Origin: Seriola aureovittata
Taxonomy: Eukaryota > Chordata > Actinopteri > Carangiformes > Carangidae
Assembly: GCF_021018895.1 (NCBI RefSeq)
Contig: NC_079379.1
Location: forward strand, 23,373,776-23,437,775
Direction of reading: 5' to 3'
Length of the DNA: 64,000 nt
The translations under genes were made by a program, and so were the position numbers. Of the stretch, positions 4,885-64,000 are shown piece by piece. The notes beneath the pieces were generated by a model that was not told the origin of the DNA, made no database searches, and saw nothing but the letters and a program-made list of their open reading frames with translations. The first letter of the stretch is position 1. Each line of letters opens with the position of its first letter.

Positions 4885-4917
<33 letters not shown>

Positions 4918-14767: not shown

Positions 14768-14812
<45 letters not shown>
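14768..14812. repeat. (AC)n microsatellite
   Basis: About 22 uninterrupted AC units. Confidence 0.95.
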
Positions 14813-14814
<2 letters not shown>

Positions 14815-15042
14815 ACAGTCTACCTCTGTAGACTTTACACAGACTCACATTCACAAGTCATTTGCACAGAATATTTTACTTGCACTATATTTGTACTTTT
14901 CTTGTTTTTTTTCCTGTGGTATTTAGTGATGTCTGATGTTGCTGGGAGGTTTTTCCAAATTAAGAATTTCATTGCACTGTGTGACAGACTGTTTCCCGTA
15001 CAGACGACAATAAAGTTTGAATTGAATTGAATTGAAATGAAT
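14813..15042 (+). mobile_element. 3' end of a LINE-like retroposon
   Basis: The sequence AAGAATTTCATTGCACTGTG followed by GACAATAAAGTTTGAATTGA and then repeated GAATT units is the typical 3' end of several fish non-LTR retroposons, which finish in a short tandem repeat instead of poly(A). No reverse-transcriptase coding sequence is present, so this is a 5'-truncated copy. The exact clade is not determined. Confidence 0.6.
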
Positions 15043-20639: not shown

Positions 20640-21110
20640 TTTTTTTATTTATTCCTCATGCAGATGAACCGTCTAATTGACATTTGTATATTTATGACAT
20701 GAATACAAAGTACTGAAACTGACAGCTTCACTGTTTACAGACGTAAATATAAAACACTGTGCACCGTGGCCCTCTCCTGCTCCGAGCCCCGTCTGAGAGG
20801 TTCAGGGTGAAGACATTACACTCCACTCACGTAACACACCTGCTGCTGTGAGAGAGCAAGGACTGTAATAATTACGCACTGTGAAAGTCCCAAAGAGCGA
20901 GCAGAGCGGGAACGAGAGGCAAAATAACCCAGTGAGCCACGGCGGTGAAGGTATCACATGGTGCGCACGTACACACACACACACACACACATACACACAC
21001 ACACACACGGCGGGGACGGCCGTCACTGGTCGTTACACACTGTCTCCAAGAACCTGGTGCAAACAGGTGAGAAGAGAGACTGAGCATGTGACAGCTGCAG
21101 AAGGAGGCTA
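20640..21110 (+). repeat. arm A of a ~480-bp inverted duplication
   Basis: This stretch recurs in reverse complement at 27,929-28,423. Shared landmarks in order are TTTATTTATTCCTCATGCAG, CTGTTTACAGACGTAAATAT, GGCCCTCTCCTGCTCCGAGC, CAAAGAGCGAGCAGAGCGGG, a CA microsatellite (20,970-21,008) and GCAGAAGGAGGCTA. Both copies carry the CA repeat at the same place, so it predates the duplication. No transposon termini or coding sequence were recognised. It may be an unclassified interspersed repeat or a local inverted duplication. Confidence 0.85.
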
Positions 21111-23470
21111 CGAGAATTTACTTATTTTCCCATGAAAAGGCCCAAAGGCGACACAAGCAGACTACTTGACTACTGTAAGTGAATTATTTAAACCGCATTT
21201 GTAATGGGAAATAATCTGAAGCTTTTTGATCCACATAAGTAGTTTCCCTTTGACAGAAAAAGCAAACAGACTTCAAAATTTAGTTTGACTTTTAAAGTGA
21301 CTTGTAGGTAAAAGACGTCACTTATCACCCAATTTTAACTTCCTCTCACTTGCATGAGGCTTGACAGCAATTTTCAGCTCATTGTGTTGGTTTTACAGCC
21401 TTCAGCTTCACTGTGTCGCTTCACTCTCACAGCTCCAGCGGTTTCCAGCTGTTTTCAAGCAGAAAAAAACTCAACTTAATGAAACTGTTAAAGAATTTAA
21501 TATCACGAATACGGTGACCAAAACTATCAGTGACATCTTGATTGGTCGTTAGGTTGGCGACTGGTCGACTGCTCCGTCCCGCCTGCTGTCGGTCCGGAGA
21601 GCCTCTTCAGTGAGAAGGAGGAGAGAGAGAAGGTTTGTCCAAACAGTCACAACATATTTCGCGCCGGCTGCTTTTAAGTAGTTAAAGGGCTTCAAGAGTC
21701 GCCAACTATAGCGAGAAGATCACTAAATTGTCAGCACTAGTCAACAGTGTTGATGAAAACTGGCCTCGTGTTATTTACAATATGACATCGGTGAAGTTAT
21801 TTAGTTATTTATTTAGGTTTTTATTTTTCTTTAAATTTTTATTTTGTAAATTCTACTGACGTGAACATAATAAGGAATAATAAAAAAAAATGTAATAAAA
21901 CAGTGTGGTCCACCATGAGCTGCCAGAGCTCTGTTATTATAGATGTGTGTTCAGATTTCGTACATTTGTGGTTGGTGTCAGATGATTAATCACATAACGG
22001 TGATGGACGCTGATTGGAGGGGGCCCCTGGCAGTTTTTTTGCCCAGGGCCCCACCGGACTCTTGACTCTCCGCTGGTAAGACGTCGGTGTTTTGTTCCCA
22101 GCTCTTGGATTAGATTCGTCACTTCCTCGACGTGACTGTGGCCGACCCCAGAATTTTATTTGAGTAAACTGGTTAAATTGACCGTGCGGTCCCGAGGTCT
22201 GTGAGAATTAGACTGGTGGTGCTTTTTCATGAAGATCTCACCTAATGCAGCTTTGAAGTGACATTCTTGTTAATCCACATAGGTTTCAATTTCAACCCAA
22301 AAGTCACTGCCTGAGAAAGCAGAACTCTATTTAGAGTCTGAGCCGCTAAATTATTTCCCCGTTGCTTCTTCCATGAGTTTTCTTTCTTGCTGCAGATTCT
22401 TAACATTGTGTGAAAGCTTCATTTCTGATGGCGATCTTGGATTCAGAGGCACTTGCGACGCTTCTTGACCCGTGAGGAGAATTGTATGTAAATGACTTGA
22501 TGTATTACCTCCACCTTCACAATGCAGAGCACACTTCTGCAACACAAAGTGCATTTCTGAGTGAAGTGCTTACTGGTGTGAACAGTCCAGGCTGGGTGAT
22601 TTGACTGATAATTCATGTCTCTGGAGGAGGGGGGGGGGGGTCAAATGAAAGAAAGACCTCAGTGTGTCAGGCAATCCACTCGCTCAAACTGTTAATGTTA
22701 ATCTTTCCCCTGCCGTCCCAGAGATGTAAGTCATTACATCAGCCTGAAGAGAGGATCCTGCAGAGAAAAAGGAAGCGCTGGTTAACGATGTGAAGAGAGG
22801 GGAGGATAACAGTCATGACAGGACAAAGGGGAAGTGACCGTGACTTGACAGTCCACTGTAGAAATGTTTCATTATGCAATTGTTCCTTTTAGATTTTGCC
22901 ATCAGTTCCTTAAGCACTAAATTCCCTGTTGCTTCCCAACAAATGGCTTTTCACAAGATTAGTATCCAACGGTTTTGTCCCATTTGTGCCGTCGTGAAGT
23001 ATTAAACTGGAGCAAATCCCCACCTCTATTAGAATAGGTCAATCTCGCTAAATGATTCTCTTCCAATTGATTCGTTCTCTCTCCTGGAAAACATGAGAGC
23101 GATTTCCAACTCAAGAAATCTCACTTTCAGCAGTTGGCTACCGGTGCAACATGTCTGACCGGCGGCTCGTCTTCTGTGTCACTGGGCAGTGTCCGAAGCC
23201 AATTGTCACACTTCGAGAAGCTTTGAATTTCAATCCAGTGTTTCCTCGTGGCACCTCAGTAACCACCACCAATACTGTGTCTATCTTCCTCCTATTTATG
23301 GATCACAAGGCACAAGACGGGAACTGATGGGGGAGTGTTGAGTTTCACACAGGTTCACACAAACTGAGACTCAGAGACAAATGTCTGGATAGTAGTACAT
23401 CAAGGGCACAAAGAGCTAACACAGCTAACATTAACTCCAGGTATTCATGATGGATTCCCAGGGGATGATT
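21111..23470. other. non-coding stretch, no gene seen
   Basis: No exon recognised. It contains a G run at 22,630-22,640. Similarity to the other arm's flank stops close to 21,110. Confidence 0.6.
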
Positions 23471-23591: not shown

Positions 23592-24482
23592 GGGAAACTG
23601 GGGCTGGAAGCTCATCTACACTTACTTCCTCATTGAGAAATCTGGATCGGGCCTTGTGCCCCGCCCACCACCTGTTGCTCCAGGTGGACAGGTGAGAGAG
23701 CAGAGAGCATCAAGATGGTGAGAGGAGGAAACATCAGAGAGACTCAGCCACATGTTTGATCCTCAGTCAGACCCAGACTCAGAGGAGGAGTCTGAGACCA
23801 GAACCAGAGACTAGCAGACGGATCAGAACGGTTAGCATAGTTAGCAATGTTTATTTGTTTATGTTGTTTGTTAGCTTGTAACTGGCAGTGGCTTACACAG
23901 TGTTAGCGGTTGTGTTAATGTAAAATATCTCTCTCTCTCTCTCTGTACTGACAAGGTTTCAGGTTTATTTAGCCCCGCCCCCCTGTTCCAACAGGTTCAC
24001 AGGATTTGGTTCTTTAGGTTTGACGTATGAAACCCTGGCTGCCTGAATCATGGAAACCTTCTCGGTACAGGGAGCGAGAGTTTGCATTAGCACATCTGCT
24101 AACATTGCGTCAGCCACTGCCAGTTACAAGCTAACAAGCGACATAAACAAATAACTAGCTTAATGCTCTGATACGTCTTCGTCTGGTCACAACAAACTCC
24201 TGAGTCTGACTCAAACATGTGGCAGCGTCTCTCTGATGTTTCCTCCTCTAACCATCTTCATCCTCTCTGCTCTTTCACCTGTCTCACCTGGAGCAAGCAG
24301 GTGGCGATGGGCGGGGCACGAGGCCTAGTCCAGATTTCTCAACGAGGAAGTAAGTTCTAGATGTGCCTCCGGCCCCAGATTTTATTTTTTATTCTTTTTC
24401 TTTTTTATGTGGGAAAGCAGGTTCAACAAAATAGAATATTATTTTTAAATAGTTTTAAACATGTCCGGAGAGGAACTAAAAG
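23471..24482. mobile_element. ~1-kb foldback element, ~450-500-bp inverted arms
   Basis: The left arm (about 23,471-23,962) and right arm (about 24,046-24,482) are imperfect reverse complements over nearly their whole length, leaving a loop of about 83 bp. Matching landmarks on the left, read toward the centre, are CATCTCCAGACATGTTTTAA, CACTTACTTCCTCATTGAGA, GTTAGCTTGTAACTGGCAGT and ACTGACAAGGTTTC. Each has a reverse-complement partner on the right. The left arm has gained a TA microsatellite (23,527-23,591) where the right has a T-rich tract. No coding sequence is present. A related single arm at 41,075-41,475 shows that it is a dispersed element family. Confidence 0.8.
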
Positions 24483-27595: not shown

Positions 27596-27928
27596 TTTAT
27601 ATGTCTTTATATGTCTCTATGTATGAGGGCCGTAAAAACCTAAACTTCACTGTAAAAGCTTCATACAAGTGAAGACAACTTTGTGTCAACAAGTATCTGA
27701 TCCATTCTGATTCAAATATTGAATATAGTCAAACTAAAACTTGAAGTCTGTTCACGTTTTGTCAAAGGGAACATTAACTTCAGTGGAAACTGAAAAAAGC
27801 TTGGGACAGATTCATTTCTATACAGATGCTGTTTAAATAATTTGCTCATAGTAATCAAGCAAACTGCTTACAGTGTTCACTTTGGGTCTTTTCATACATG
27901 ACAACGTGACAAAACATTTAAACTGTTG
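27596..27928. other. non-coding stretch, no gene seen
   Basis: Short unique-looking stretch between the dispersed repeat and arm B of the inverted duplication. Confidence 0.6.
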
Positions 27929-28050
27929 TAGCCTCCTTCTGCAGCTGCTTCATGCTCAGTCTCTCTTCTCAGCCTACGAGGTTCTTGGAGACACAGTGTG
28001 TAACAACCAGTGACGACCGTCCCTGTCTGCTCTTCCAACATAAGAGGTGT

Positions 28051-28097
<47 letters not shown>

Positions 28098-28423
28098 TGC
28101 GCACCATGTGATACCTTCACCGCCGTGGCTCACTGGGTTATTTTGCCTCTCGTTCCCGCTCTGCTCGCTCTTTGGGACTTTCACAGTGCGTAATTAATAC
28201 AGTCCTTGCTCTCTCACAGCAGCAGGTGTGTTACGTGAGTGGAGTGTAATGTCGTCACCCTGAACCTCTCAGACGGGGCTCGGAGCAGGAGAGGGCCACG
28301 GCGCAGTGTATCTTATATTTACGTCTGTAAACAGTGAAGCTGTCGGTTTCATTACTGTATATTCATGTCATAAATATACAAATGTCAATTAGATGGTTCA
28401 TCTGCATGAGGAATAAATAAAAA
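27929..28423 (-). repeat. arm B of the inverted duplication
   Basis: Reverse-complement partner of 20,640-21,110, carrying a GT microsatellite (28,047-28,094) at the position of arm A's CA repeat. By eye the match outside the microsatellite is high, with scattered substitutions and short indels. It ends at GAATAAATAAAAA, just before a LINE-like tail. Confidence 0.85.
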
Positions 28424-41074: not shown

Positions 41075-41475
41075 TTAATGTTAATGTTAAAAGTGCACAA
41101 CCATTAACTGTGTGTCAGCCACTGCTAGTTACAAGCCAACAAACATAAAAGATGCTAACTACGCTAAGTGTTCACATACATCTGCTAGTCTCTGGTTCTG
41201 GTCTCAACAGACTCTGAGTCTGGGTCTGACTGAGGCTCAAACACATGGCTGAGTCTCTCTGATATTTCCTCCTTATCTCGATGCTCTCTGCTCTTTCACC
41301 TGTCCACCTGGAGCAAGCAGGTGGTGGGCGGGGCACAAGGCCTGATCCAGAATTTTCTCAATGAGGAAGTAAAAGTAGATTTGACTTTTTATGTGAGACA
41401 AACATGTTAAACAAAATATTACTCACAGCAGACTATTTTTACAGTTTAAATCGTGTCTGTAAAGAAACTGTAATA
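41075..41475 (+). mobile_element. single-arm copy of the foldback element
   Basis: It matches the right arm of the element at 23,471-24,482 in the same orientation. Landmarks are GTCAGCCACTGCTAGTTACA, AGACTCTGAGTCTGGGTCTG, TCACCTGTCCACCTGGAGCA, GGGCGGGGCACAAGGCCTGA and AATGAGGAAGTAA, then TTTTTATGTGAGACAAACAT. No opposite arm lies next to it, so this is a half element. Confidence 0.8.
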
Positions 41476-45136: not shown

Positions 45137-45300
45137 ATCTTACTTTTACAGTCTGGAAAAACAGGTGGAAAAAGAAGGGTTTGACATGCAAAGAATCAAA
45201 CTACTGCCTGGCTGATTACCATATCCAATAACGTTTTTATGACATATTATGCCTTACTATATTATGACGTTGTTACGTTTTACTATACCATAACATTTTT

Positions 45301-45380
45301 GGTGAAGCTTGTTGGTGCAATGGATATAACTGTTGCCTCTCACAGAGAAGGTTGTGGGTTCGAAACCTAGCTCAAGCGTA
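45301..45380 (+). mobile_element. tRNA-like SINE head inserted in the array edge
   Basis: GTTGGTGCAATGGATATAAC TGTTGCCTCTCACAG is the head of the fish repeat whose body is seen at 40,061-40,288. GGTTCGAAACC (about 45,357-45,367) is a good box B. Array-like sequence resumes around 45,400. It is truncated; no body follows. Confidence 0.6.
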
Positions 45381-46487
45381 ACACATTATGTTACAAGGCA
45401 ACGCCTTACAATATTATAACTTTTTATGCCTTACTATAATATGACTTTTTTATGCCTTACTATACTATGTCATTTTTTAAACTTTTTGTGCCTTACTATA
45501 ATATGTTGTTTTTATGAGTTTTTATGTATTGCTATAATATGACTTTGTTATGCCTTACATTACTATATCGTTTTCATGGATTTTTATGCCTTACTATACT
45601 ATGACGCTTCCTTTACTTATTTCATTTTCATGTATTTTTATGCCTTACTATACTGTTTTTTTTAATGATTTTTATGCCTTATTATAATATGATGTTTTTA
45701 GAAATCACTATACTATGTCGTTTTCATGTATTTTTATGCCTTACCGTACTATGTCGTTTTTATGGATTTTTATGCCTTACTATACTATGATGTTTTTAGA
45801 AATTACTCTATTATGACATTTTTATGCCTTACTATACTATGTCGTTTTTTTTACCTTTTGTGCCTCACTATAATATGACATTTTTATTACTCTTTGCCTT
45901 AATATGACGTTTTTAGGCCTCACTAAATCATGTCGTTTTTATGTATTTTTATACCTTCCTGTACTATGTCGTTTTCATGTATTTTTATGCCTTACTATAC
46001 TATATTGTTTTTATGGATTTTTATGCCTTACTATACTATGTCATTTTCATGACATTTTATGCCATCACATTTTTATGACTTTTTATACCTTACTATACTA
46101 TGACATTTTTAGGCCTCAATAAACAATGTCATTTTTATGGATTTTTATGCCTTTTTATGACTTTCTATATTATGACATTTTTAGGACTTTTCATACCTTA
46201 CTATACTATGACATTTTATGCCTAATTATACTTTGACTTTTTATGACTTTTTATTCCTTACTTTACTATGGCGTTTTTGATATCTTACTATACTTTGACG
46301 TTTTTATGCCTTACTATACTATGTCCTTTTTATGACTTTTTATGCCTTACTATACTATGACATTTTTATGACTTTTTATGCCTTACTATACTATGACGCT
46401 TTTAGGCCTCACTAAACAATGTCATTTTTATGGATTTTTATGCCTTACAATACTATGACGTTTTTAAGACTTTCTATATCTTACTAT

Positions 46488-47241
46488 TGTCACATTGTGG
46501 TGAGGTTGTCTTGTCTTGGGTTTGTTTTGTCCTGTCATTTCCTGTTTTATTTTGAAAAGTAATTCTCCTCTCGTTTCAGGTCACTTGCCCTTCCTCATGT
46601 GTCTCAGTCTGATTGCCCTAAGTGTTTCCACCTGTCCCCTATTTCCCTCCATGTGTTTAAATAGTCTGTAGTCCCCTTGTCTTGCGCCAGAGTGTCTTCA
46701 TCCTTGACCTGCACCCGAGCCTTTGTCCATGTCCACAGCCATAGTAATAGCAAAAGTAAGCCGTTTGTACCTCGAGAAGAGTGATTTTTTTTGTTTGTAA
46801 ATTTTTGCCATAGTTTAGGTTCATAGCCCTTTTGTTTTTCCTCTTTAAGAGTGAATTTTTGTTTGTATTTCTTCCCTTAGCCTATTTCCATAGATCTTAG
46901 TTTTTCTTTGGTATGAGTGATTTTTATTTCATGTAGCCTAGTTATTAATTATTCTAAATCCTCCGCTTAGGAGTGTGAGTAGATTATTTTAATTTATTTT
47001 TATGTAGTCAGGTTTTTCCTCCGTACGGAGCGATTTGTGTTAATCGGTTTGTTGCTTTTGATTAGAGCCTTTTTCCTCCTCCTGGAGTGTTTTTCGTTCC
47101 TCAGGATTCAGAGTTAGTGTCTATTCTTTTTCATAGCCATTTTGTTTATCACTCTGTCTGACGTCTGAGGTGAATTCAATAAAAGCCTATTGTTTTCTAA
47201 AATCTCTGCATCTGAGTACTGCTTCGAGTCCCTGCCTGACA
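46488..47241 (+). mobile_element. solo LTR (754 bp) with ACTAT target duplication, inside the array
   Basis: The element starts TGTCACATTG and ends GCCTGACA. ACTAT, a word of the array monomer, stands immediately before (46,483-46,487) and after (47,242-47,246), so both termini are certain. An AATAAA at 47,178-47,183 lies about 60 bp before the 3' end. There is no internal retroelement sequence. Its termini TGTCA...TGACA resemble those of the LTR at 18,725-19,218, but the bodies are not obviously the same family. It dates an insertion after the array existed. Confidence 0.85.
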
Positions 47242-49279
47242 ACTATAGTATAATGTTTTTATGACTTTTTATTACTTACTATACTGTGACTTATGACTTT
47301 TTATGCCTTACAATACTATGACATTTTTAGGACTTTTTATATTTTACTATAGTATGACGTTTTTAGGACTTTTTTACATTACTAAATAGTATGACTTTTT
47401 TTGCCTTACTTTACTATGTTGTTGTTTTATTTTTATTTTTTTTATGCGTTACTATACTGTAACGTTTTTATGACCTTTTATGTCTTATTATACTGTGAAG
47501 TTTTTAGGACTTTCTATACTATGTAGTTTTCATGTATTTTTATGCCTAAATATACTATGTCATTTTTATGCCTTACTATACTATGTTTTAGAAATTACTA
47601 TACTGACATTTTTATGACTTTTTAGGCCTTCTTATACTATGATGTTTTGAGGCCTCACTAAACAATGTCATTTTTATGGATTTTTATGCCTTACTATACT
47701 ATGATGTTTTCAGGACCTTTCATACTTTACTATACTATGTCGTTTTCAAGACTTTTTATGACTTACTATACGATGTCGTTTTCATGGATTTTTATGACTT
47801 ACTATATTATGTCGATTTTATGCCTTACAATACTATGACATTTTTAGGACTTTTTATATCTTACTATAGTATGACGTTTTTATGCCTTACTATAGTATGT
47901 CATTTTCATGACTTTTTATGCCTTACTATACTATGGTGTTTTCATGCCTTAGTATACTATGCCGTTTTAAGACTTTTTATACCTTACTATACTATGACAT
48001 TTTTATGACTTTGTTTGCCTTCCTATACTATGTCGTTTTTAAGACTTTTTATGCCTTACTATACGATGTCGTTTTCATGGATTTTTATGACTTACTATAC
48101 TATGACGTTTTTATGCCTTACAATACTATGACATTTTTAGGACTTTTTATATATTACTATAGTATGACGTTTTTAGTCCTTGCTATACTATGTTATTTTT
48201 TTGACTTTTAATGCATTACTATACTAGGACGTTTTTATGCCTTACTATACTATGACGTTTTTAAGTCTTTTTATACCTTACTATACTATGACATTTTTAT
48301 GACTTTGTTTGCCTTCCTATACTATGTCGTTTTTAAGACTTTTTATGCCTTACTATATTATGTCGTTTTTATGCCTTACAATACTTTGACATTTTTAGGA
48401 CTTTTTATATCTTACTATAGTATGACGTTTTTATGCCTTACTATACTATGTCATTTTCATGACTTTTTATGCCTTACTATACTATGATGTTTTTATGCCT
48501 TACTATACTATGTCATTTTCATGACTTTTTATGCCTTACTATACTATGACGTTTTCAGGCCTTAGTATAATATGCCGTTTTAAGACTTTTTATACCTTAC
48601 TATACTATGACGTTTTCAGGCCTTAGTATAATATGCCGTTTTAAGACTTTTTATACCTCACTGTACTATGACATTTTTATGAGTTTGTTTGCCTTCCTAT
48701 ACTTTGTCGTTTTTAAGACTTTTTATGACTTACTATACTATGATGTTTTTATGCCTTAGTATAATATGCCGTTTTAAGACTTTTTATATCTTATTATATT
48801 ATGTTGTTTCTATGACATTTTATGCCTTACTATACTATGACGTTTTTATACCTTACTATACTATGACGTTTTTATGACTTTTTATGCCTTACTATACTAT
48901 GACGTTTTCAGGCCTTAGTATAATATGACGTTTCATGACTTTTTATATCTTATTATATTATGTTGTTTCTATGACATTTTATGCCTTACTATACTATGAC
49001 GTTTTTATACCTTACTATACTATGACGTTTTTATGACTTTTTATGCCTTACTATACTATGACGTTTTCAGGCCTTAGTATAATATGACGTTTCATGACTT
49101 TTTATGCCTTACTATACTATGACGTTTTCAGGCCTTAGTATAATATGCCGTTTTAAGACTTTTTATATCTTATTATATTATGTTGTTTCTATGACATTTT
49201 ATGCCTTACTATACTATGACGTTTTTATACCTTACTATACTATGACGTTTTTATGACTTTTTATGCCTTACTATACTAT

Positions 49280-50760
49280 GACGTTTTCAGGCCTTAGTAT
49301 AATATGACGTTTCATGACTTTTTATGCCTTACTATACTATGACGTTTTCAGGCCTTAGTATAATATGCCGTTTTAGGACTTTTTATACCTTATTATATAA
49401 TGTTGTTTTTATGACATTTTATGCCTTACTATACTATGACGTTTTTATGACATTTTATGCCTTACTATACTATGACGTTTTTATGACTTTTTATGCCTTA
49501 CTATACTATGACGTTTTTTTGACTTTTTATGCCTTACAATACTATGACATTTTTCTGACTTTGTTTGCCTTCCTATACTATGTCGTTTTTAAGACTTTTT
49601 ATGACTTACTATACTATGACCTTTTTATGCCTTACTATATTATGTCGTTTTTATGACTTTTTATGCCTTATTATACCATGACGTTTTTATGACTTTTTAT
49701 GCCTTACTATACTATGACGTTTTCAGGCCTTAGTATAATATGACGTTTCATGACTTTTTATGCCTTACTATACTATGACGTTTTCAGGCCTTAGTATAAT
49801 ATGCCGTTTTAGGACTTTTTATACCTTATTATATAATGTTGTTTTTATGACATTTTATGCCTTACTATACTATGACGTTTTTATGACATTTTATGCCTTA
49901 CTATACTATGACGTTTTTATGACTTTTTATGCCTTACTATACTATGACGTTTTTTTGACTTTTTATGCCTTACAATACTATGACATTTTTCTGACTTTGT
50001 TTGCCTTCCTATACTATGTCGTTTTTAAGACTTTTTATGACTTACTATACTATGACCTTTTTATGCCTTACTATATTATGTCGTTTTTATGACTTTTTAT
50101 GCCTTATTATACCATGACGTTTTTATGACTTTTTATGCCTTATTATACTATGACGTTTTCAGGCCTTAGTATAATATGCCGTTTTAAGACTTTTTATACC
50201 TTACTATACTATGTCGTTTTTATGACTTTTTATATCTTACTATAGTATGACGTTTTTATGCCTTACTATACTATGTCATTTTAAGACTTTTTATATCTTA
50301 TTATATTATGTTGTTTCTATGACATTTTATGCCTTACTATTACTATGACGTTTTTATACCTTACTATACTATGACGTTTTTATGACTTTTTATGCCTTAC
50401 TATACTATGACGTTTTCAGGCCTTAGTATAATATGACGTTTCATGACTTTTTATGCCTTACTATACTATGACGTTTTCAGGCCTTAGTATAATATGCCGT
50501 TTTAGGACTTTTTATACCTTATTATATAATGTTGTTTTTATGACATTTTATGCCTTACTATACTATGACGTTTTTATGACATTTTATGCCTTACTATACT
50601 ATGACGTTTTTATGACTTTTTATGCCTTACTATACGATGACGTTTTTTTGACTTTTTATGCCTTACAATACTATGACATTTTTCTGACTTTGTTTGCCTT
50701 CCTATACTATGTCGTTTTTAAGACTTTTTATGACTTACTATACTATGACCTCTTTATGCC
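49280..50760 (+). repeat. 436-bp higher-order repeat
   Basis: The segment beginning at 49,324 recurs at 49,760 (shift 436 bp) with no difference over at least 330 bp, then again at 50,453 (shift 693 bp) with few changes, for example TATACTATGAC becoming TATACGATGAC near 50,630. This is an amplified block of about 12 monomers. Confidence 0.9.
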
Positions 50761-53700
50761 TTACTATACTATGACTTTTTTTTTACTTTTTATGCCTTAC
50801 TATACTATGATGTTTTTATGACTTTTTATGCCTTAATATACTATGAAGTTTTTATGACTTTTTATTCCTTACTATACTATGACGTTTTTTTGACTTTTTA
50901 TGCCTTACTATACTATGACGTTTTTATGACTTTTTATGCCTTACTATACTATGACGTTTTCAGGCCTTAGTATAATATGCCGTTTTGAGACTTTTTATAC
51001 CTTACTATACTATGTCATTTTCATGACTTTTTCTGCCTTACTATACTATGACGTTTTCAGTCCTTAGTATAATATGCCGTTTTAGGACTTTTTATACCTT
51101 ATTATATTATGTTGTTTTTATGACATTTTATGCCTTACTATACTATGACGTTTTTATTACTTTTTATGCCTTACTATACTATGACGTTTTTATGACTTTT
51201 TATGCCTTACTATACTATGACGTTTTTATGACTTTTTATGCCTTACAATACTATGACATTTTTATGACTTTATATGACTTACTATACTATGTCGTTGTTA
51301 TGACTTTTTATGACTTACTATACTATGACGTTTTTATGACTTTTTATGCCTTATTATACCATGACGTTTTTATGACTTTTTATGCCTTATTATACTATGA
51401 CGTTTTCAGGCCTTAGTATAATATGCCGTTTTAAGACTTTTTATACCTTACTATACTATGTCGTTTTTATGACTTTTTATATCTTACAATAGTATGACGT
51501 TTTTATGCCTTACTATACTATGTCATTTTCATGACTTTTTATGCCTTATTATACTATGACGTTTTTATGACTTTTTATGCCTTACTATACTATGACGTTT
51601 ATATGACTTTTTATGCCTTACTATACTATGACGTTTTTATGACTTTTTATGCCTTACTATTACTATGACGTTTTTATGACTTTTTATGCCTTACTATACT
51701 ATGTCGTTTTTAAGACTTTTTATGACTTACTATACCATTACGTTTTTATGCCTTATAATATTATGTCGTTTTTATGCCTTACAATACTTTGACATTTTTC
51801 GGACTTTTTATATCTTGCTATAGTATGTCATTTTCATGACTTTTTATGCCTTACTATACTATGACGTTTTTATGCCTTACTATACTATGTCATTTTCATG
51901 ACTTTTTATGCCATATTATACTATGACGTTTTTATGACTTTTTATGCCTTACTATACTATGACGTTTTCAGGCCTTAGTATAATATGACGTTTCATGACT
52001 TTTTATGCCTTACTATACTATGACGTTTTTATGACTTTTTATATCGTACTATAGTTTTTATGACTTTTTATATCTTACTATAGTATGACGTACTATTTCA
52101 TGTCATTTTCATGACTTTTTATGCATTACTATACAGTGACTTTTTTTGACTTTTTATGCCTTACTATACTATGACGTTTTTATGACTTTTTATGCCTTAC
52201 TATACTATGACGTTTTCATGCCTTAGTATAATATGCTGTTTTAAGACTTTTTATATCTTATTATATTATGTTGTTTTTATGACATTTTATGCCTTACTAT
52301 ACTATGACATTTTCATGACTTTTTATGGCTTACTATACTATGACGTTTTCAGTCCTTAGTATAATATTCCGTTTTAGGACTTTTTATACCTTATTATATT
52401 ATGTCATTTTCATGACTTTTTATGCCTTACTATACTATGAGGTTTTTATGCCTTACTATACTATGACGTTTTTATGACTTTTTATGCCTTACTATACTAT
52501 GACGTTTTTATTACTTTTTATGCCTTACTATACTATGACGTTTTCAGGCCTTAGTATAATATGCCGTTTTAGGACTTTTTATACCTTACTATACTATGTC
52601 GTTTTTATGACTTTTTATATCTTACTATAGTATGACGTTTTTATGCCTTACTATACTATGTCATTTTCATGACTTTTTATGCCTTATTATACTATGACGT
52701 TTTTATGACTTTTTATGCCTTACTATACTATGACGTTTATATGACTTTTTATGCCTTACTATACTATGACGTTTTTATGACTTTTTATGCCTTACTATAC
52801 TATGACTTTTTTTTTACTTTTTATGCCTTACTATACTATGTCGTTTTTAAGACTTTTTATGACTTACTATACCATTACGTTTTTATGCCTTATAATATTA
52901 TGTCGTTTTTATGCCTTACAATACTTTGACATTTTTCGGACTTTTTATATCTTGCTATAGTATGTCATTTTCATGACTTTTTATGCCTTACTATACTATG
53001 ACGTTTTTATGCCTTACTATACTATGTCATTTTCATGACTTTTTATGCCATATTATACTATGATGTTTTTATGACTTTTTATGCCTTACTATACTATGAC
53101 GTTTTCAGGCCTTAGTAAAATATGCCGTTTTAAGACTTTTTATACATTACTATACTATGTCATTTTCATGACTTTTTATGCCTTACTATACTATGATGTT
53201 TTCAGGCCTTAGTATAATATGCCGTTTTAAGACTTTTTATATCTTATTATATTATGTTGTTTTTATGACATTTTATGCCTTACTATACTATGACGTTTTT
53301 ATGCCTTAATATACTATGTCATTTTCATGACTTTTTATGCCTTACTATACTATGACGTTTTTATGACTTTTTATGCCTTACTATACTATGACGTTTTCAG
53401 GCCTTAGTATAATATGACGTTTTCATGACTTTTTATGCCTTACTATACTATGACGTTTTTATGACTTTTTATATCGTACTATAGTTTTTATGACTTTTTA
53501 TATCTTACTATAGTATGACGTACTATTTCATGTCATTTTCATGACTTTTTATGCATTACTATACAGTGACTTTTTTTGACTTTTTATGCCTTACTATACT
53601 ATGACGTTTTCATGCCTTAGTATAATATGCTGTTTTAAGACTTTTTATATCTTATTATATTATGTTGTTTTTATGACATTTTATGCCTTACTATACTATG

Positions 53701-54133
53701 ACATTTTCATGACTTTTTATGCCTTACTATACTATGACGTTTTCAGTCCTTAGTACAATATGCCGTTTTAGGACTTTTTATACCTTATTATATTATGTCA
53801 TTTTCATGACTTTTTATGCCTTACTATACTATGACGTTTTTATGCCTTACTATACTATGATGTTTTTATGACTTTTTATGCCTTACTATACTATGACGTT
53901 TTTATGACTTTTTATGCCTTACTATACTATGACGTTTTCAGGCCTTAGTATAATATGCCGTTTTAGGACTTTTTATACCTTATTATATTATGTCATTTTC
54001 ATGACATTTTATGCCCTTCTATACTATGACGTTTTTAGGACTTTTTATGCCTTACTATACTATGACGTTTTCAGGCCTTAGTATAATATGCCGTTTTAAG
54101 ACTTTTTATACCTTACTATACTACGTCATTTTC

Positions 54134-54340
54134 TTTCTTTTTTTCTTTTAAATATATTTTTGTTGGGCTTTTTATGCCTTTATTCGATAGTATAGTGGAG
54201 AGAGACAAGAAACGGGGAGGCAGAAAGAGGGGGAATGACATGCAGCGAAAGGCCGTCCGATGCAGGATTCGAGCCGGGGCCAGCTGCAGCGAGGACTGTA
54301 GCCTGCTTAGACCACTACGCTACACAATGGCCCATACAAT
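54134..54340 (-). mobile_element. tRNA-derived SINE inside the array, copy 1
   Basis: On the minus strand the head has GTAGCGTAGTGG and box B GGCTCGAATCC, followed by the C/T-rich body and A-rich tail of the family at 51-272. GTCATTTTC flanks it on both sides (54,125-54,133 and 54,341-54,349), a target duplication made from monomer sequence. Confidence 0.9.
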
Positions 54341-57300
54341 GTCATTTTCATGACCTTTTATGCCTTACTATACTATGACGTTTTCAGGCCTTAGTATAAT
54401 ATGCCGTTTTAGGACTTTTTATACCTTATTATATTATGTTGTTTTTATGACATTTTATACCTTATTATATTATGTTGTTTTTATGACTTTTTATGCCTTA
54501 CTATACTATGACGTTTTTATGCCTTACTATACTATGTCATTTTCATGACTTTTTATGCCATATTATACTATGACGTTTTTATGACTTTTTATGCCTTACT
54601 ATACTATGACGTTTTCAGGCCTTAGTAAAATATGCCGTTTTAAGACTTTTTATACATTACTATACTATGTCATTTTCATGACTTTTTATGCCTTACTATA
54701 CTATGATGTTTTCAGGCCTTAGTATAATATGCCGTTTTAAGACTTTTTATATCTTATTATATTATGTTGTTTTTATGACATTTTATGCCTTACTATACTA
54801 TGACGTTTTTATGCCTTAATATACTATGTCATTTTCATGACTTTTTATGCCTTACTATACAATGACGTTTTTATGACTTTTTATGCCTTACTATACTATG
54901 ACGTTTTCAGGCCTTAGTATAATATGACGTTTCATGACTCTTTATGCCTTACTATACTATGACGTTTTTATGACTTTTTATATCGTACTATAGTTTTTAT
55001 GACTTTTTATATCTTACTATAGTATGACGTACTATTTCATGTCATTTTCATGACTTTTTATGCATTACTATACAGTGACTTTTTTTGACTTTTTATGCCT
55101 TACTATACTATGACGTTTTTATGACTTTTTATGCCTTACTATACTATGACGTTTTCATGCCTTAGTATAATATGCTGTTTTAAGACTTTTTATATCTTAT
55201 TATATTATGTTGTTTTTATGACATTTTATGCCTTACTATACTATGACATTTTCATGACTTTTTATGGCTTACTATACTATGACGTTTTCAGTCCTTAGTA
55301 TAATATGCCGTTTTAGGACTTTTTATACCTTATTATATTATGTCATTTTCATGACTTTTTATGCCTTACTATACTATGACGTTTTTATGCCTTACTATAC
55401 TATGACGTTTTTATGACTTTTTATGCCTTACTATACTATGACGTTTTTATTACTTTTTATGCCTTACTATACTATGACGTTTTCAGGCCTTAGTATAATA
55501 TGCCGTTTTAGGACTTTTTATACCTTACTATACTATGTCGTTTTTATGACTTTTTATATCTTACTATAGTATGACGTTTTTATGCCTTACTATACTATGT
55601 CATTTTCATGACTTTTTATGCCTTATTATACTATGACGTTTTTATGACTTTTTATGCCTTACTATACTATGACGTTTATATGACTTTTTATGCCTTACTA
55701 TACTATGACGTTTTTATGACTTTTTATGCCTTACTATACTATGACTTTTTTTTTACTTTTTATGCCTTACTATACTATGTCGTTTTTAAGACTTTTTATG
55801 ACTTACTATACCATTACGTTTTTATGCCTTATAATATTATGTCGTTTTTATGCCTTACAATACTTTGACATTTTTCGGACTTTTTATATCTTGCTATAGT
55901 ATGTCATTTTCATGACTTTTTATGCCTTACTATACTATGACGTTTTTATGCCTTACTATACTATGTCATTTTCATGACTTTTTATGCCATATTATACTAT
56001 GACGTTTTTATGACTTTTTATGCCTTACTATACTATGACGTTTTCAGGCCTTAGTAAAATATGCCGTTTTAAGACTTTTTATACATTACTATACTATGTC
56101 ATTTTCATGACTTTTTATGCCTTACTATACTATGATGTTTTCAGGCCTTAGTATAATATGCCGTTTTAAGACTTTTTATATCTTATTATATTATGTTGTT
56201 TTTATGACATTTTATGCCTTACTATACTATGACGTTTTTATGCCTTAATATACTATGTCATTTTCATGACTTTTTTGCCTTACTATACTATGACGTTTTT
56301 ATGACTTTTTATGCCTTACTATACTATGACGTTTTCAGGCCTTAGTATAATATGACGTTTTTATGACTTTTTATATCGTACTATAGTTTTTATGACTTTT
56401 TATATCTTACTATAGTATGACGTACTATTTCATGTCATTTTCATGACTTTTTATGCATTACTATACAGTGACTTTTTTTGACTTTTTATGCCTTACTATA
56501 CTATGACGTTTTTATGACTTTTTATGCCTTACTATACTATGACGTTTTCATGCCTTAGTATAATATGCTGTTTTAAGACTTTTTATATCTTATTATATTA
56601 TGTTGTTTTTATGACATTTTATGCCTTACTATACTATGACATTTTCATGACTTTTTATACCTTACTATACTATGTCGTTTTTATGACTTTTTATATCTTA
56701 CTATAGTATGACGTTTTTATGCCTTACTATACTATGTCATTTTCATGACTTTTTATGCCTTATTATACTATGACGTTTTTATGACTTTTTATGCCTTACT
56801 ATACTATGACGTTTATATGACTTTTTATGCCTTACTATACTATGACGTTTTTATGACTTTTTATGCCTTACTATACTATGACTTTTTTTTTACTTTTTAT
56901 GCCTTACTATACTATGTCGTTTTTAAGACTTTTTATGACTTACTATACCATTACGTTTTTATGCCTTATAATATTATGTCGTTTTTATGCCTTACAATAC
57001 TTTGACATTTTTCGGACTTTTTATATCTTGCTATAGTATGTCATTTTCATGACTTTTTATGCCTTACTATACTATGACGTTTTTATGCCTTACTATACTA
57101 TGTCATTTTCATGACTTTTTATGCCATATTATACTATGACGTTTTTATGACTTTTTATGCCTTACTATACTATGACGTTTTCAGGCCTTAGTAAAATATG
57201 CCGTTTTAAGACTTTTTATACATTACTATACTATGTCATTTTCATGACTTTTTATGCCTTACTATACTATGATGTTTTCAGGCCTTAGTATAATATGCCG

Positions 57301-58209
57301 TTTTAAGACTTTTTATATCTTATTATATTATGTTGTTTTTATGACATTTTATGCCTTACTATACTATGACGTTTTTATGCCTTAATATACTATGTCATTT
57401 TCATGACTTTTTTGCCTTACTATACTATGACGTTTTTATGACTTTTTATGCCTTACTATACTATGACGTTTTCAGGCCTTAGTATAATATGACGTTTTTA
57501 TGACTTTTTATATCGTACTATAGTTTTTATGACTTTTTATATCTTACTATAGTATGACGTACTATTTCATGTCATTTTCATGACTTTTTATGCATTACTA
57601 TACAGTGACTTTTTTTGACTTTTTATGCCTTACTATACTATGACGTTTTTATGACTTTTTATGCCTTACTATACTATGACGTTTTCATGCCTTAGTATAA
57701 TATGCTGTTTTAAGACTTTTTATATCTTATTATATTATGTTGTTTTTATGACATTTTATGCCTTACTATACTATGACATTTTCATGACATTTTATGCCTT
57801 ACTATACTATGACGTTTTCAGTCCTTAGTATAATATGCCGTTTTAGGACTTTTTATACCTTATTATATTATGTCATTTTCATGACTTTTTATGCCTTACT
57901 ATACTATGACGTTTTTATGCCTTACTATACTATGATGTTTTTATGACTTTTTATGCCTTACTATACTATGACGTTTTTATGACTTTTTATGCCTTACTAT
58001 ACTATGACGTTTTCAGGCCTTAGTATAATATGCCGTTTTAGGACTTTTTATACCTTATTATATTATGTCATTTTCATGACATTTTTATGCCCTTCTATAC
58101 TATGACGTTTTTAGGACTTTTTATGCCTTACTATACTATGACGTTTTCAGGCCTTAGTATAATATGCCGTTTTAAGACTTTTTATACCTTACTATACTAC
58201 GTCATTTTC

Positions 58210-58416
58210 TTTCTTTTTTTCTTTTAAATATATTTTTGTTGGGCTTTTTATGCCTTTATTCGATAGTATAGTGGAGAGAGACAAGAAACGGGGAGGCAGA
58301 AAGAGGGGGAATGACATGCAGCGAAAGGCCGTCCGATGCAGGATTCGAGCCGGGGCCAGCTGCAGCGAGGACTGTAGCCTGCTTAGACCACTACGCTACA
58401 CAATGGCCCATACAAT
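58210..58416 (-). mobile_element. tRNA-derived SINE inside the array, copy 2
   Basis: By eye identical to copy 1 over its full length, with the same flanking GTCATTTTC words and the same neighbouring variant monomers, 4,076 bp downstream. It therefore arose by duplication of the array segment, not by a second insertion. Confidence 0.9.
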
Positions 58417-59086
58417 GTCATTTTCATGACCTTTTATGCCTTACTATACTATGACGTTTTTATGACTTTTTATGCCATATTATACTATGACTTTTTTTTT
58501 ACTTTTTATGCCTTACAATACTATGATATTTTTCTGACTTTGTTTGCCTTCCTATACTATGTCGTTTTTAAGACTTTTTATGACTTACTATACTATGACG
58601 TTTTTATGCCTTACTATATTATGTCGTTTTTAATACTTTTTATGACTTACTATACTATGACATTTTTATGCCTTACTACATTATGTCGTTTTTATGACTT
58701 TTTATGCCTTACTATACTATGACGTTTTCAGGCCTTAGTATAATATGCCGATTTAAGACTTTTTATACATTACTATATAATGACATTTTTATGACTTTTT
58801 ATATCTTACTATAGTATTACGTTTTCATGCCTTACTATACTATGTCATTTTCATGACTTTTTATGCCTTACTATACTATGCCGTTTTAAGACTTTTTATG
58901 ACTTACTATACTATGACGTTTTTATGCCATATAATATTATGTCGTTTTTATGCCTTACAATACTTTGACATTTTTCTGACTTTTTATATCTTACTATAGT
59001 ATGTCATTTTCATGACTTTTTATGCCTTACTATACTATGACGTTTTTATGCCTTACTATACTATGTCATTTTCATGACTTTTTATG

Positions 59087-62000
59087 CCTTACTATACTAT
59101 GTCGTTTTCATGACTTTTTATGCCTTACTATACTATGACGTTTTTATGACTTTTTATGCCTTACTATACTATGTCGTTTTTATGACTTTTTATGCCTTAC
59201 TATACTATGACGTTTTCAGGCCTTAGTATAATATGCCGTTTTAAGACTTTTAATACCTTACTATATTATGTCGTTTTTATGACTTTTTATATCTTACTAT
59301 AGTATGACGTTTTTATGCCTTACTATACTATGTCATTTTCATGACTTTTTATGCCTTAATATACTATGACGTTTTTATGACTTTTTATGCCTTATTATAC
59401 TATGACGTTTTTATGACTTTTTATGCCTTACTATACTATGACGTTTTTATGACTTTTTATGCCTTACTATACTATGACGTTTTCAGGCCTTAGTATAATA
59501 TGCCGATTTAAGACTTTTTATACCTTACTATATAATGACATTTTTATGACTTTTTATATCTTACTATAGTATTACGTTTTCATGCCTTACTATACTATGT
59601 CATTTTCATGACTTTTTATGCCTTACTATACTATGCCGTTTTAAGACTTTTTATACCTTACTATACTATGACGTTTTTATGCCTTAGTATAATATGCTGT
59701 TTTAAGACTTTTTATATCTTATTATATTATGTTGTTTTTATGACATTTTATGCCTTACTATACTATGACGTTTTCAGTTCTTAGTATAATATGCCGTTTT
59801 AGGACTTTTTATACCTTATTATATTATGTCATTTTCATGACATTTTATGCCTTACTATACTATGACGTTTTTATGACTTTTTATGCCTTACTATACTATG
59901 ACTTTTTTTTTACTTTTTATGCCTTACAATACTATGACATTTTTCTGACTTTGTTTGCCTTCCTATACTATGTCGTTTTTAAGACTTTTTATGACTCACT
60001 ATACTATGACGTTTTTATGCCTTACTATATTATGTCGTTTTTATGACTTTTTATGCCTTACAATACTATGACGTTTTTATGACTTTGTTTGACTTCCTAT
60101 ACTATGTCGTTTTTAAGACTTTTTATGACTTACTATACTATGACATTTTTATGACTTTGTTTGACTTCCTATACTATGTCGTTTTTAAGACTTTTTATGA
60201 CTTACTATACTATGACGTTTTTATGCCATATAATATTATGTCGTTTTTATGCCTTACAATACTTTGACATTTTTCGGACTTTTTATATCTTACTATAGTA
60301 TGTCATTTTCATGACTTTTTATGCCTTACTATACTATAACGTTTTTATACCTTACTATACTATGTCGTTTTCATGACTTTTTATGCCTTACTATACTATG
60401 ACGTTTTTATGACTTTTTATGCCTTACTATACTATGTCGTTTTTATGACTTTTTATGCCTTACTATACTATGACGTTTTCAGGCCTTAGTATAATATGCC
60501 GTTTTAAGACTTTTAATACCTTACTATATTATGTCGTTTTTATGACTTTTTATATCTTACTATAGTATGACGTTTTTATGCCTTACTATACTATGTCATT
60601 TTCATGACTTTTTATGCCTTAATATACTATGACGTTTTTATGACTTTTTATGCCTTATTATACTATGACGTTTTTATGACTTTTTATGCCTTACTATACT
60701 ATGACGTTTTTATGACTTTTTATGCCTTACTATACTATGACGTTTTCAGGCCTTAGTATAATATGCCGATTTAAGACTTTTTATACCTTACTATATAATG
60801 ACATTTTTATGACTTTTTATATCTTACTATAGTATTACGTTTTCATGCCTTACTATACTATGTCATTTTCATGACTTTTTATGCCTTACTATACTATGCC
60901 GTTTTAAGACTTTTTATACCTTACTATACTATGACGTTTTTATGCCTTAGTATAATATGCTGTTTTAAGACTTTTTATATCTTATTATATTATGTTGTTT
61001 TTATGACATTTTATGCCTTACTATACTATGACGTTTTCAGTTCTTAGTATAATATGCCGTTTTAGGACTTTTTATACCTTATTATATTATGTCATTTTCA
61101 TGACATTTTATGCCTTACTATACTATGACGTTTTTATGACTTTTTATGCCTTACTATACTATGACTTTTTTTTTACTTTTTATGCCTTACAATACTATGA
61201 CATTTTTCTGACTTTGTTTGCCTTCCTATACTATGTCGTTTTTAAGACTTTTTATGACTCACTATACTATGACGTTTTTATGCCTTACTATATTATGTCG
61301 TTTTTATGACTTTTTATGCCTTACAATACTATGACGTTTTTATGACTTTGTTTGACTTCCTATACTATGTCGTTTTTAAGACTTTTTATGACTTACTATA
61401 CTATGACATTTTTATGACTTTGTTTGACTTCCTATACTATGTCGTTTTTAAGACTTTTTATGACTTACTATACTATGACGTTTTTATGCCATATAATATT
61501 ATGTCGTTTTTATGCCTTACAATACTTTGACATTTTTCGGACTTTTTATATCTTACTATAGTATGTCATTTTCATGACTTTTTATGCCTTACTATACTAT
61601 AACGTTTTTATACCTTACTATACTATGTCGTTTTCATGACTTTTTATGCCTTACTATACTATGACGTTTTTATGACTTTTTATGCCTTACTATACTATGT
61701 CGTTTTTATGACTTTTTATGCCTTACTATACTATGACGTTTTCAGGCCTTAGTATAATATGCCGTTTTAAGACTTTTAATACCTTACTATATTATGTCGT
61801 TTTTATGACTTTTTATATCTTACTATAGTATGACGTTTTTATGCCTTACTATACTATGTCATTTTCATGACTTTTTATGCCTTAATATACTATGACGTTT
61901 TTATGACTTTTTATGCCTTATTATACTATGACGTTTTTATGACTTTTTATGCCTTACTATACTATGACGTTTTTATGACTTTTTATGCCTTACTATACTA

Positions 62001-62360
62001 TGACGTTTTCAGGCCTTAGTATAATATGCCGATTTAAGACTTTTTATACCTTACTATATAATGACATTTTTATGACTTTTTATATCTTACTATAGTATTA
62101 CGTTTTCATGCCTTACTATACTATGTCATTTTCATGACTTTTTATGCCTTACTATACTATGCCGTTTTAAGACTTTTTATACCTTACTATACTATGACGT
62201 TTTTATGCCTTAGTATAATATGCTGTTTTAAGAATTTTTATATCTTATTATATTATGTTGTTTTTATGACATTTTATGCCTTACTATACTATGACGTTTT
62301 CAGTCCTTAGTATAATATGCCGTTTTAGGACTTTTTATACCTTATTATATTATGTCATTT
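59087..62360 (+). repeat. 1,263-bp higher-order repeat, about 2.6 copies
   Basis: Copies start near 59,087, 60,350 and 61,613. Open frames at 59,750, 61,013 and 62,276 are exactly 1,263 bp apart, and copies 1 and 2 appear identical. The third diverges near 62,365, where it switches to a TTTGTTTGCC variant. The lack of divergence points to very recent amplification, or to assembly duplication. Confidence 0.9.
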
Positions 62361-64000
62361 TCATGACTTTGTTTGCCTTCCTATACTATGTCGTTTTTAA
62401 GACTTTTTATGACTTACTTTACTATGTCATTTTCATGACTTTTTATGCCTTACTATACTATGACATTTTCAGGCCTTAGTATAATATGCCGTTTTAAGAC
62501 TTTTTATATTTTATTATATTATGTTGTTTTTATGACATTTTATGCCTTACTATACTATGACGTTTTTATGACTTTTTATGCCTTACTATACTATGACTTT
62601 TTATGACTTTTTATGCCTTACAATACTATGACATTTTTTGACTTCTTTTGCCTTCCTATACTATGTCGTTTTTAAGCCTTTTTATGACTTACTATACTAT
62701 GACGTTTTTATGCCTTACTATATTATGTCGTTTTTATGACTTTTTATGCCTTACTATACTATGACGTTTTTATGACTTTTTATGCCTTACTATACTATGA
62801 CGTTTTCAGGCCTTAGTATAATATGCCGATTTAAGACTTTTTATACATTACTATATAATGACATTTTTATGACTTTTTATATCTTACTATAGTATTACGT
62901 TTTCATGCCTTACTATACTATGTCATTTTCATGACTTTTTATGCCTTACTATACTATGCCGTTTTAAGACTTTTTATGACTTACTATACTATTACGTTTT
63001 TATGCCATATAATATTATGTCGTTTTTATGCCTTACAATACTTTGACATTTTTCTGACTTTTTATATCTTACTATAGTATGTCATTTTCATGACTTTTTA
63101 TGCCTTACTATACTATGACATTTTTATGCCTTACTATACTTTGTCATTTTCATGACTTTTTATGCCTTACTATACTATGTCGTTTTCATGACTTTTTATG
63201 CCTTACTATACTATGACGTTTTTATGACTTTTTATGCCTTACTATACTATGACGTTTTTATGACTTTTTATGCCTTACTATACTATGACGTTTTTTTGAC
63301 TTTTTATGCCTTTCTATACTATGACATTTTTTATGACTTTTTATGCCTTACTATACTATGACGTTTTTATGACTTTTTATGCCTTACTATACTATGTCGT
63401 TTTTATGACTTTTTATGCCTTACTATACTATGACGTTTTCAGGCCTTAGTATAATATGCCGTTTTAAGACTTTTAATACCTTACTATAATATGCCGTTTT
63501 AAGACTTTTAATACCTTACTATATTATGTCGTTTTTATGACTTTTTATATCTCACTATAGTATGACGTTTTTATGCCTTAATATACTATGTCATTTTCAT
63601 GACTTTTTATGCCTTACTATACTATGTCATTTTCATGACTTTTTATGCCTTAATATACTATGACGTTTTTATGACTTTTTATGCCTTATTATACTATGAC
63701 GTTTTTATGACTTTTTATGCCTTACTATACTATGACGTTTTTATGACTTTTTATGCCTTACTATACTATGACGTTTTCAGGCCTTAGTATAATATGCCGA
63801 TTTAAGACTTTTTATACCTTACTATATAATGACATTTTTATGACTTTTTATATCTTACTATAGTATTACGTTTTCATGCCTTACTATACTATGTCATTTT
63901 CATGACTTTTTATGCCTTACTATACTATGCCGTTTTAAGACTTTTTATGACTCACTATACTATGACGTTTTTATGCCTTACTATATTATTTCGTTTTTAT

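What the first reader, a model, noticed from the sequence alone, without database searches (positions are those of the whole stretch)
45228..64000. Large 36-bp AT-rich satellite-like array, at least 18.8 kb and unfinished
The array is far longer than a typical minisatellite, has one orientation throughout, and extends past the window. It has higher-order structure like centromeric or heterochromatic satellites, but with a very short unit. I do not recognise the unit as a described fish satellite.
Basis: partly seen in the sequence, partly recalled or inferred. Interest (0 to 1): 0.8.

Follow-up and report, generated by a model that had tools for sequence, protein, structure and literature searches.

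The report
Dispersed short-unit satellite DNA array
This is one block of an abundant short tandem repeat that sits in many multi-kilobase blocks scattered along the chromosomes of one genome, and some of those blocks start at or near a shared mobile-element-like sequence, which hints at how satellite DNA can spread.

Summary
The array is real. It runs from about 45231, in one orientation, and ends 1.7 kb past the window: about 20.5 kb in all. The unit is a 26-bp core with or without a 10-bp insert, spaced 36, 26 or 35 bp. The array carries a solo LTR, a SINE copied with its surroundings, and block copies at lags of 436 to 4076 bp. Its left edge is more divergent than its interior.

The host genome (647 Mb, 31 contigs) holds 249,343 core matches within 3 mismatches (reversed control 0), about 1.3% of it; I located 55 array loci on 16 contigs. 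So it is a true satellite, but dispersed rather than centromere-like.

Arrays probably grow by unequal exchange. At 3 of 18 array starts a shared repeat (368 bp at full length) lies within 80 bp of the array; a fourth has a piece 490 bp away; all in one orientation. This suggests seeding by a mobile element. Against that: this array lacks it, as do most starts; no terminal repeats or target duplication were found; and the genome query for it included 61 bp of array, which may tilt the association. I found no published match to the unit in the papers searched. New family of a known kind, moderately interesting.

The parts
45231..64000 (+). Satellite array (26-bp core, with or without a 10-bp insert); continues about 1.7 kb past the window to near C16:23,439,467
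   Evidence: 516 cores, all +; last core ends at L009:1692; exact left end uncertain by some 20 bp
45231..48227 (+). Divergent left edge of the array (3.67 and 3.39 mismatches per core in the first two 1.5-kb bins, against 2.13-2.80 in the other eleven)
45302..45404 (+). 103-bp non-satellite insert, ends set by eye; tRNA-like promoter boxes (recalled; ARAGORN finds no tRNA); 49-bp match at L036:963-1011
46488..47241 (+). Solo LTR, 754 bp, TG...CA ends, flanked by 5-bp direct repeats ACTAT (46483-46487 and 47242-47246)
49222..50220 (+). 436-bp block, about 2.3 copies, 98.4%
51842..56374 (+). 2939-bp lag block copy (51842-53436 with 54781-56374), 99.4%
55512..57818 (+). 1137-bp block, two copies, 99.7%
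54138..54338 (-). tRNA-derived SINE (type recalled; ends set by eye) inserted in the array
   Evidence: 87% to window 102-262
58214..58414 (-). Second SINE copy at +4076, identical over the 260 bp compared; copied with its array surroundings (53542-54384 with 57616-58460, 99.1%)
59079..62469 (+). 1263-bp block, about 2.7 copies, 99.2%

Best explanation
The array is one locus of an abundant, dispersed interstitial satellite DNA family. Shown: tandem one-orientation arrays at many chromosomal sites, block copies, divergent edges, and no sign of site-by-site constraint on the monomer. Inferred: each array grows and homogenises by unequal exchange, so that blocks of 0.4-4 kb, with any inserted SINE, are copied whole while edges decay. 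The 26/36 alternation is gain or loss of one of two adjacent 10-bp words (TTTTTATGAC/TTTTTATGCC) inside the unit. Inferred with less support: the family was scattered as part of, or at the 3' end of, a mobile element, because a dispersed repeat of about 368 bp lies at or near the array start, in the same orientation, at some loci. At most loci read, this one included, that repeat is not recognisable. No function was demonstrated.
For: 16,534 exact and 249,343 <=3-mismatch matches genome-wide, reversed controls 0. 55 array loci on 16 contigs after merging places that I picked. Block copies at 97-99.7%. A spacing defect (65 then 51 bp) occurs at five places. At 7 of 10 block boundaries checked the neighbouring spacings are the usual 26/35/36; at the other 3 the 65/51 defect lies beside them. 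SINE copied at +4076, 260 of 260 identical. Edge cores more divergent than interior at 12 of 13 edges. Rare variants fall fairly evenly over 25 positions (mean 27.8, sd 7.3, highest 51 at position 13). Head repeat 2, 79 and 12 bp from the array at C22, L036 and L035 and, as a 99-bp piece, 490 bp from it at L037, same orientation in all four, of 18 starts. All 40 places scored match it, on 18 contigs; of the 39 besides the query, 28 begin at query 16-23 and 27 end at 385-388, the C22 array beginning at 391. 3 of those 39 lie within 30 kb upstream of a known array in the same orientation, 0 in the opposite; none of 5000 random placements gave 3, and 10 gave 2.
Against: 14 of 18 array starts, this window's included, show no part of the head repeat; 7 of 9 array ends show no tail repeat. 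No terminal inverted repeat and no shared 7-10-bp word (target duplication) was found for the C22 composite, whose outer end on the tail side is uncertain. The genome query for the head repeat held 61 bp of array at its end, so the 40 places scored out of 940 candidates may be tilted towards copies beside arrays, and the 940 may include plain array windows; a query without the array part did not complete. One of the 3 associated copies (L036) was already known from the flank comparison. Mean identity of cores within loci (0.863) is hardly above that between loci (0.855), and within this array neighbouring cores (0.832) are no more alike than distant ones (0.843 at 300 units), with small rises only at block lags (0.867 at 38, 0.861 at 113). 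Simple neighbour-by-neighbour homogenisation of old arrays would not predict this; copying in blocks and a fairly recent spread, or exchange between loci, fit better. The genome-wide tail-repeat search did not complete.
Confidence: 0.6

Rival explanations
1. Arrays spread without a transposon, by excision as circular DNA (rolling-circle copies) and re-insertion at many sites; the shared repeat at some starts is a frequent repeat that was captured or inserted there.
For: 18 of 27 flanks compared match no other flank; within- and between-locus identity are nearly equal, as expected from exchange between loci; the head repeat has at least 40 copies.
Against: The head repeat lies on the start side in one orientation in 4 of 4 cases and the tail repeat keeps one orientation relative to the nearest monomers in 3 of 3 cases, though in C7 it is some 0.7 kb from the first inverted core. 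The overlap with known arrays exceeds 5000 random placements, with the query caveat given above.
Confidence: 0.27
2. It is a centromeric or pericentromeric satellite, and the interstitial arrays are stray copies.
For: AT-rich, abundant, tandem, copied in blocks.
Against: Scattered over at least 16 contigs with several places on contigs such as C1, C2, C3, C7 and C9; the array is bounded at about 20.5 kb; no full CENP-B box in the window; no regular higher-order unit. A large unassembled centromeric block cannot be excluded.
Confidence: 0.08
3. A purely local minisatellite.
For: Short unit and mixed unit length.
Against: 249,343 matches genome-wide, reversed control 0.
Confidence: 0.01
4. The unit is kept by selection because a protein binds it (for instance for chromosome pairing or nuclear-matrix attachment).
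For: Same majority core at 14 of 14 loci apart from the last base, G or T.
Against: New rare variants fall fairly evenly over the 25 positions; no unusual folding or curvature in the stretches tested.
Confidence: 0.04

Closest known systems
Scattered satellite DNAs of the Pacific oyster Crassostrea gigas, mostly carried in Helitrons (PMC8268682; abstract and section 2.3 read)
   Same: Satellite dispersed over chromosomes; conserved sequence boxes beside arrays at part of the loci, the rest standing alone.
   Different: There arrays are described as relatively short, single monomers being the commonest class for most of the satellites studied, with a longest standalone array of about 40 kb. Here the six arrays with both ends located span about 14-43 kb (the 43-kb C18 array was not read through) with a far shorter unit. 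The element here is not identified; Helitron end signals were not tested.
Tetris foldback transposon and TIR-220 satellite of Drosophila virilis (PMC4079207; abstract and outline read)
   Same: Transposon-borne tandem repeats that expand into kb-size arrays; some arrays here have inverted monomers at their edges (C7, C6b, C2b, C4).
   Different: No terminal inverted repeats were found for the C22 composite; unit of 26/36 bp instead of about 220 bp; arrays here are spread along the contigs.
Classical centromeric satellites with higher-order repeats (recalled; a fish centromere paper, PMC5705604, seen only as a search listing)
   Same: Homogenised blocks, divergent edges.
   Different: Scattered interstitial arrays, no regular higher-order unit, no CENP-B box match in the window.

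Membership tests
Satellite DNA family (multi-locus tandem repeat) | Head-to-tail units in one orientation over kilobases | tested here: met
   516 of 516 cores on + over 18.8 kb
Satellite DNA family (multi-locus tandem repeat) | High copy number at many loci | tested here: met
   249,343 matches <=3 mismatches; 55 loci on 16 contigs
Satellite DNA family (multi-locus tandem repeat) | Location in heterochromatin | not testable with these tools
   No chromatin data
Centromeric satellite | Concentrated at one place per chromosome | tested here: not met
   Several scattered places per contig where listed; listings are partial and unassembled blocks cannot be seen
Centromeric satellite | CENP-A occupancy | not testable with these tools
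   No ChIP data; CENP-B box TTCGnnnnAnnCGGG absent from the window
Tandem repeat carried by a transposon (Helitron or foldback type) | Shared element sequence flanking arrays | tested here: inconclusive
   Head repeat at or near 4 of 18 starts (one only a distant piece), tail repeat at 2 of 9 ends plus, reversed beside inverted monomers, at the C7 head
Tandem repeat carried by a transposon (Helitron or foldback type) | Terminal inverted repeats (foldback type) | tested here: not met
   C22 composite: 74 of 200 shuffles score at least as well; one locus only, outer tail end uncertain
Tandem repeat carried by a transposon (Helitron or foldback type) | Helitron 5'-TC / 3'-CTRR hairpin ends (recalled) | not tested
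   -
Minisatellite confined to one locus | Single locus | tested here: not met

The most novel reading that the evidence does not exclude
A vertebrate mobile element with a head of about 368 bp seeds satellite arrays: tandem copies of a 26/36-bp unit at the 3' side of that head have expanded to 15-40 kb at several hundred interstitial sites and now make up over 1% of the genome, so that a transposon has turned into a dispersed satellite in long arrays rather than the mostly short arrays known from oysters.
Probability: 0.3. Interest if true: 0.6.

Novelty: new member of a known kind. Interest (0 to 1): 0.4.

Why it matters
How satellite DNA reaches new chromosomal sites is an open question. 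A genome in which one short-unit satellite occupies many separate, assembled, bounded interstitial arrays, with a shared repeat on the same side of some of them, lets the two candidate routes (carriage by an element, or re-insertion of circular copies) be told apart by reading junctions. It also means that over 1% of this genome is easily collapsed or misplaced in assemblies.

Tried and rejected
Protein coding: one frame of the 36-mer is open and gives open frames of up to 129 aa in the array, but 26- and 35-bp spacings break it, Pfam finds nothing in the one array frame scanned, and the only database relative, P0001, is the 125-aa product of a 604-bp ENA contig whose first 29 aa match and whose remainder reads like sequencing-adapter read-through (adapter reading recalled). 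A second, shorter query found none among 519 candidates.

CpG decay as a sign of methylation: the CpG site is CG in 331 of 516 cores, CA in 107, TG in 49, but a non-CpG G (position 8) turns to A about as often (107 against 109); inconclusive. Hairpins: z 0.68 and 0.25 for one 290-bp stretch, no excess. Curvature: 1.061 against 1.081 +- 0.007 in shuffles of one 5-kb stretch; none. Rfam: three weak SCARNA7 matches far below the cut-off, each overlapping a GT/CA microsatellite, taken as chance. ARAGORN: no tRNA. Viral contigs: no exact match to a 17-mer of the unit.

Fixed array phase: six array starts seemed to share one monomer phase, but I had set the starts by core hits. By free alignment 6 of 8 starts fall at phases 3-11 of 36 and two at 20 and 25. 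This is post hoc, the edges are degenerate, and I did not follow it up; it stays open. A first, stricter comparison of fewer flanks found only simple repeats and one 50-bp match; a more sensitive one found the shared repeats. In one search L039 was left out because its array runs from its first bases; flank lengths varied from about 100 to 4000 bp.

Genes beside the array: 29 of 91 flank ORFs of >=75 aa (stop to stop; 91 is my count of the list) were scanned against Pfam. None reached a cut-off; two weak matches at E 0.061 and 0.096 lie below theirs. Gene context therefore remains open.

Literature: motif searches found 0 papers; keyword searches. The '36 bp' of PMC11590113 is a read-trimming length (passages).

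Change made on checking: the probability of the transposon reading is lowered from 0.35 to 0.3, the confidence of the main explanation from 0.62 to 0.6, and the circle rival is raised from 0.25 to 0.27, because the query contained 61 bp of array.
Full report
What is there. Tandem Repeats Finder reports overlapping periods, among them 26, 36, 62, 72 and 98 bp, over the last 18.6 kb of the window. A direct count of the 26-bp core TTTTTATGCCTTACTATACTATGACG finds 516 matches at >=18/26 from 45244 on, every one on the + strand, none in the first 45,227 bases, and none at >=20/26 in 20 shuffles. Spacings are 36 (264 of 515), 26 (144) and 35 (78) bp. In 181 of the 342 spacings of 35 or 36 bp the spacer is TTTTTATGAC or TTTTCATGAC. 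The unit thus contains two near-identical adjacent 10-bp words, and the short spacing lacks one of them.

Extent. The window lies at C16:23,373,776-23,437,775 of a held assembly of 647,093,275 bases in 31 contigs. The last core ends 1692 bases past the window: about 20.5 kb in all, bounded, some 2.5 Mb from the end of a 25.9-Mb contig.

Internal history. Four stretches of more than 110 bp break the monomer run: a 103-bp insert near 45302-45404; a solo LTR of 754 bp at 46488-47241 with TG...CA ends and the 5-bp direct repeat ACTAT on both sides; and two copies of a SINE-like element at 54138-54338 and 58214-58414. The two SINE copies are identical over the 260 bp compared, because the surrounding array was copied with them: 53542-54384 matches 57616-58460 at 99.1%. 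Other block copies have lags of 436, 1137, 1263 and 2939 bp at 97-99.7%. One spacing defect (65 then 51 bp) occurs at five places; at 7 of 10 block boundaries checked the neighbouring spacings are the usual ones, and at the other 3 that defect lies beside them. This is what unequal exchange in register would leave. Neighbouring cores are no more alike (0.832) than cores 300 units apart (0.843), with small rises at block lags, so copying works in blocks rather than monomer by monomer. The left edge is more divergent: 3.67 and 3.39 mismatches per core in the first two 1.5-kb bins, 2.13 to 2.80 after that. Edge cores are more divergent than interior ones at 12 of 13 array edges looked at in this genome.

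Genome-wide. The exact core occurs 8178 + 8356 times and, with up to 3 mismatches, 128,664 + 120,679 = 249,343 times; the reversed pattern gives 0 in both searches. At about 34 bp per core this is some 8.5 Mb, 1.3% of the assembly. Of the 5428 cores (>=18/26) in 14 loci read, 81.6% fall within 3 mismatches, so the total may be nearer 10 Mb; both figures are my arithmetic. Places that I picked from the partial listings merge into 55 array loci on 16 contigs. Six arrays with both ends located span about 14 to 43 kb (the 43-kb C18 array was not read through, and the C4 array contains non-satellite stretches and 500 N). The total then suggests several hundred loci; this is an inference. The loci are scattered along contigs and lie in both orientations.

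Evolution of the unit. Over 14 loci the majority core is the same at every locus except for its last base (G or T), and mean identity of cores within a locus (0.863) is scarcely above that between loci (0.855). Rare variants (<1% of a locus) are spread fairly evenly over the 25 positions at 13 loci (mean 27.8, sd 7.3 per position, highest 51 at position 13), so I see no site-by-site constraint. Spread from a common source, or exchange between loci, explains the likeness better than selection. I found no hairpin or curvature signal in the stretches tested.

How it spread. The flanks of 18 array starts and 9 array ends were compared; 18 of the 27 match no other. The starts of C22, L036 and L035 share one sequence in the same orientation, 2, 79 and 12 bp from the array; L037 has a 99-bp piece of it 490 bp from its array. 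L035 lacks both ends of it. The ends of C22 and C2b share another sequence, which also lies at the head side of C7, reverse-complemented, about 0.7 kb from inverted monomers. L041 and L042 share a further 140 bp. In the 336 kb compared (147 kb of it non-array) the head and tail repeats were found only at these loci, and not beside the window's own array.

A genome search with the C22 start scored 40 of 940 candidates. All 40 match, on 18 contigs, the 39 others at 73-78%; 28 of 39 begin at query 16-23 and 27 of 39 end at 385-388, whereas the array in the query begins at 391. So it is a dispersed repeat of about 368 bp that ends where the array starts in C22. Two copies (C18:11,620,935 and C5:20,697,126) align on into the array part of the query, and C19:7,655,015 has an array-like piece about 200 bp downstream. 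Of the 39, 3 lie within 30 kb upstream of one of the 55 known arrays in the same orientation and 0 in the opposite; of 5000 random placements none reached 3 and 10 reached 2. Two cautions: the query held 61 bp of array, which may have tilted the choice of candidates and means that 940 is not a copy number, and one of the 3 (L036) was already known. A query without the array part did not complete.

I take this as fair evidence of an association and modest evidence that an element carried or seeded the arrays. Against it stand the 14 of 18 starts without the repeat, the absence of terminal inverted repeats or a target duplication in the C22 composite, and the tail-repeat search, which did not complete.

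What is known. The closest described pattern is the oyster Crassostrea gigas, whose satellites are scattered over the genome and largely associated with Helitrons; arrays there are described as relatively short, though one standalone array reaches about 40 kb (PMC8268682, abstract and section 2.3). Tetris of Drosophila virilis shows a foldback transposon giving rise to a satellite (PMC4079207, abstract). A review calls satellite or satellite-like repeats a common component of euchromatin (PMC10048060, passages). Searches of 5.39 million open papers for pieces of the unit found nothing; Dfam and Repbase could not be searched. I therefore file it as a new family of a known kind (dispersed satellite DNA), with arrays that are long for that kind, and hold the transposon origin as the bold reading.

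Verdict. Interest is moderate.

Noticed in passing
window 102-265: A SINE-like element in the flank, 87% identical to the SINE inside the array; further copies at L022:7726-7881 and L034:526-670.
   Followed up: partly
window 20642-21290 and 27727-28423: Inverted pair of related sequences, 82% over 706 aligned positions, probably copies of one dispersed element.
   Followed up: no
window 23614-23914 and 41096-41380 (inverted); 24100-24353 and 41105-41372 (direct): Related repeats, 75-83% identical.
   Followed up: no
L032 5730-6076 and L027 9596-9857 (locus C7): Array with inverted monomers near both ends, and the tail repeat reverse-complemented at its head side: a foldback-like arrangement.
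   Followed up: partly
Array starts of eight loci: 6 of 8 starts align at phases 3-11 of the 36-bp unit; post hoc, possibly an effect of degenerate edges.
   Followed up: partly
L015 (C4:4,505,000-4,514,999): 500 N in a stretch with a satellite array, an assembly gap or withheld stretch; the array's length there is uncertain.
   Followed up: no
P0001 (ENA contig of 604 bases): A public contig encodes about two of the same 36-bp units followed by what looks like adapter read-through, so the satellite was probably sampled in another data set.
   Followed up: partly
window 14700-14903, 2691-2855, 4847-5018: Weak SCARNA7 model matches far below cut-off, overlapping GT/CA microsatellites; probably chance.
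   Followed up: no
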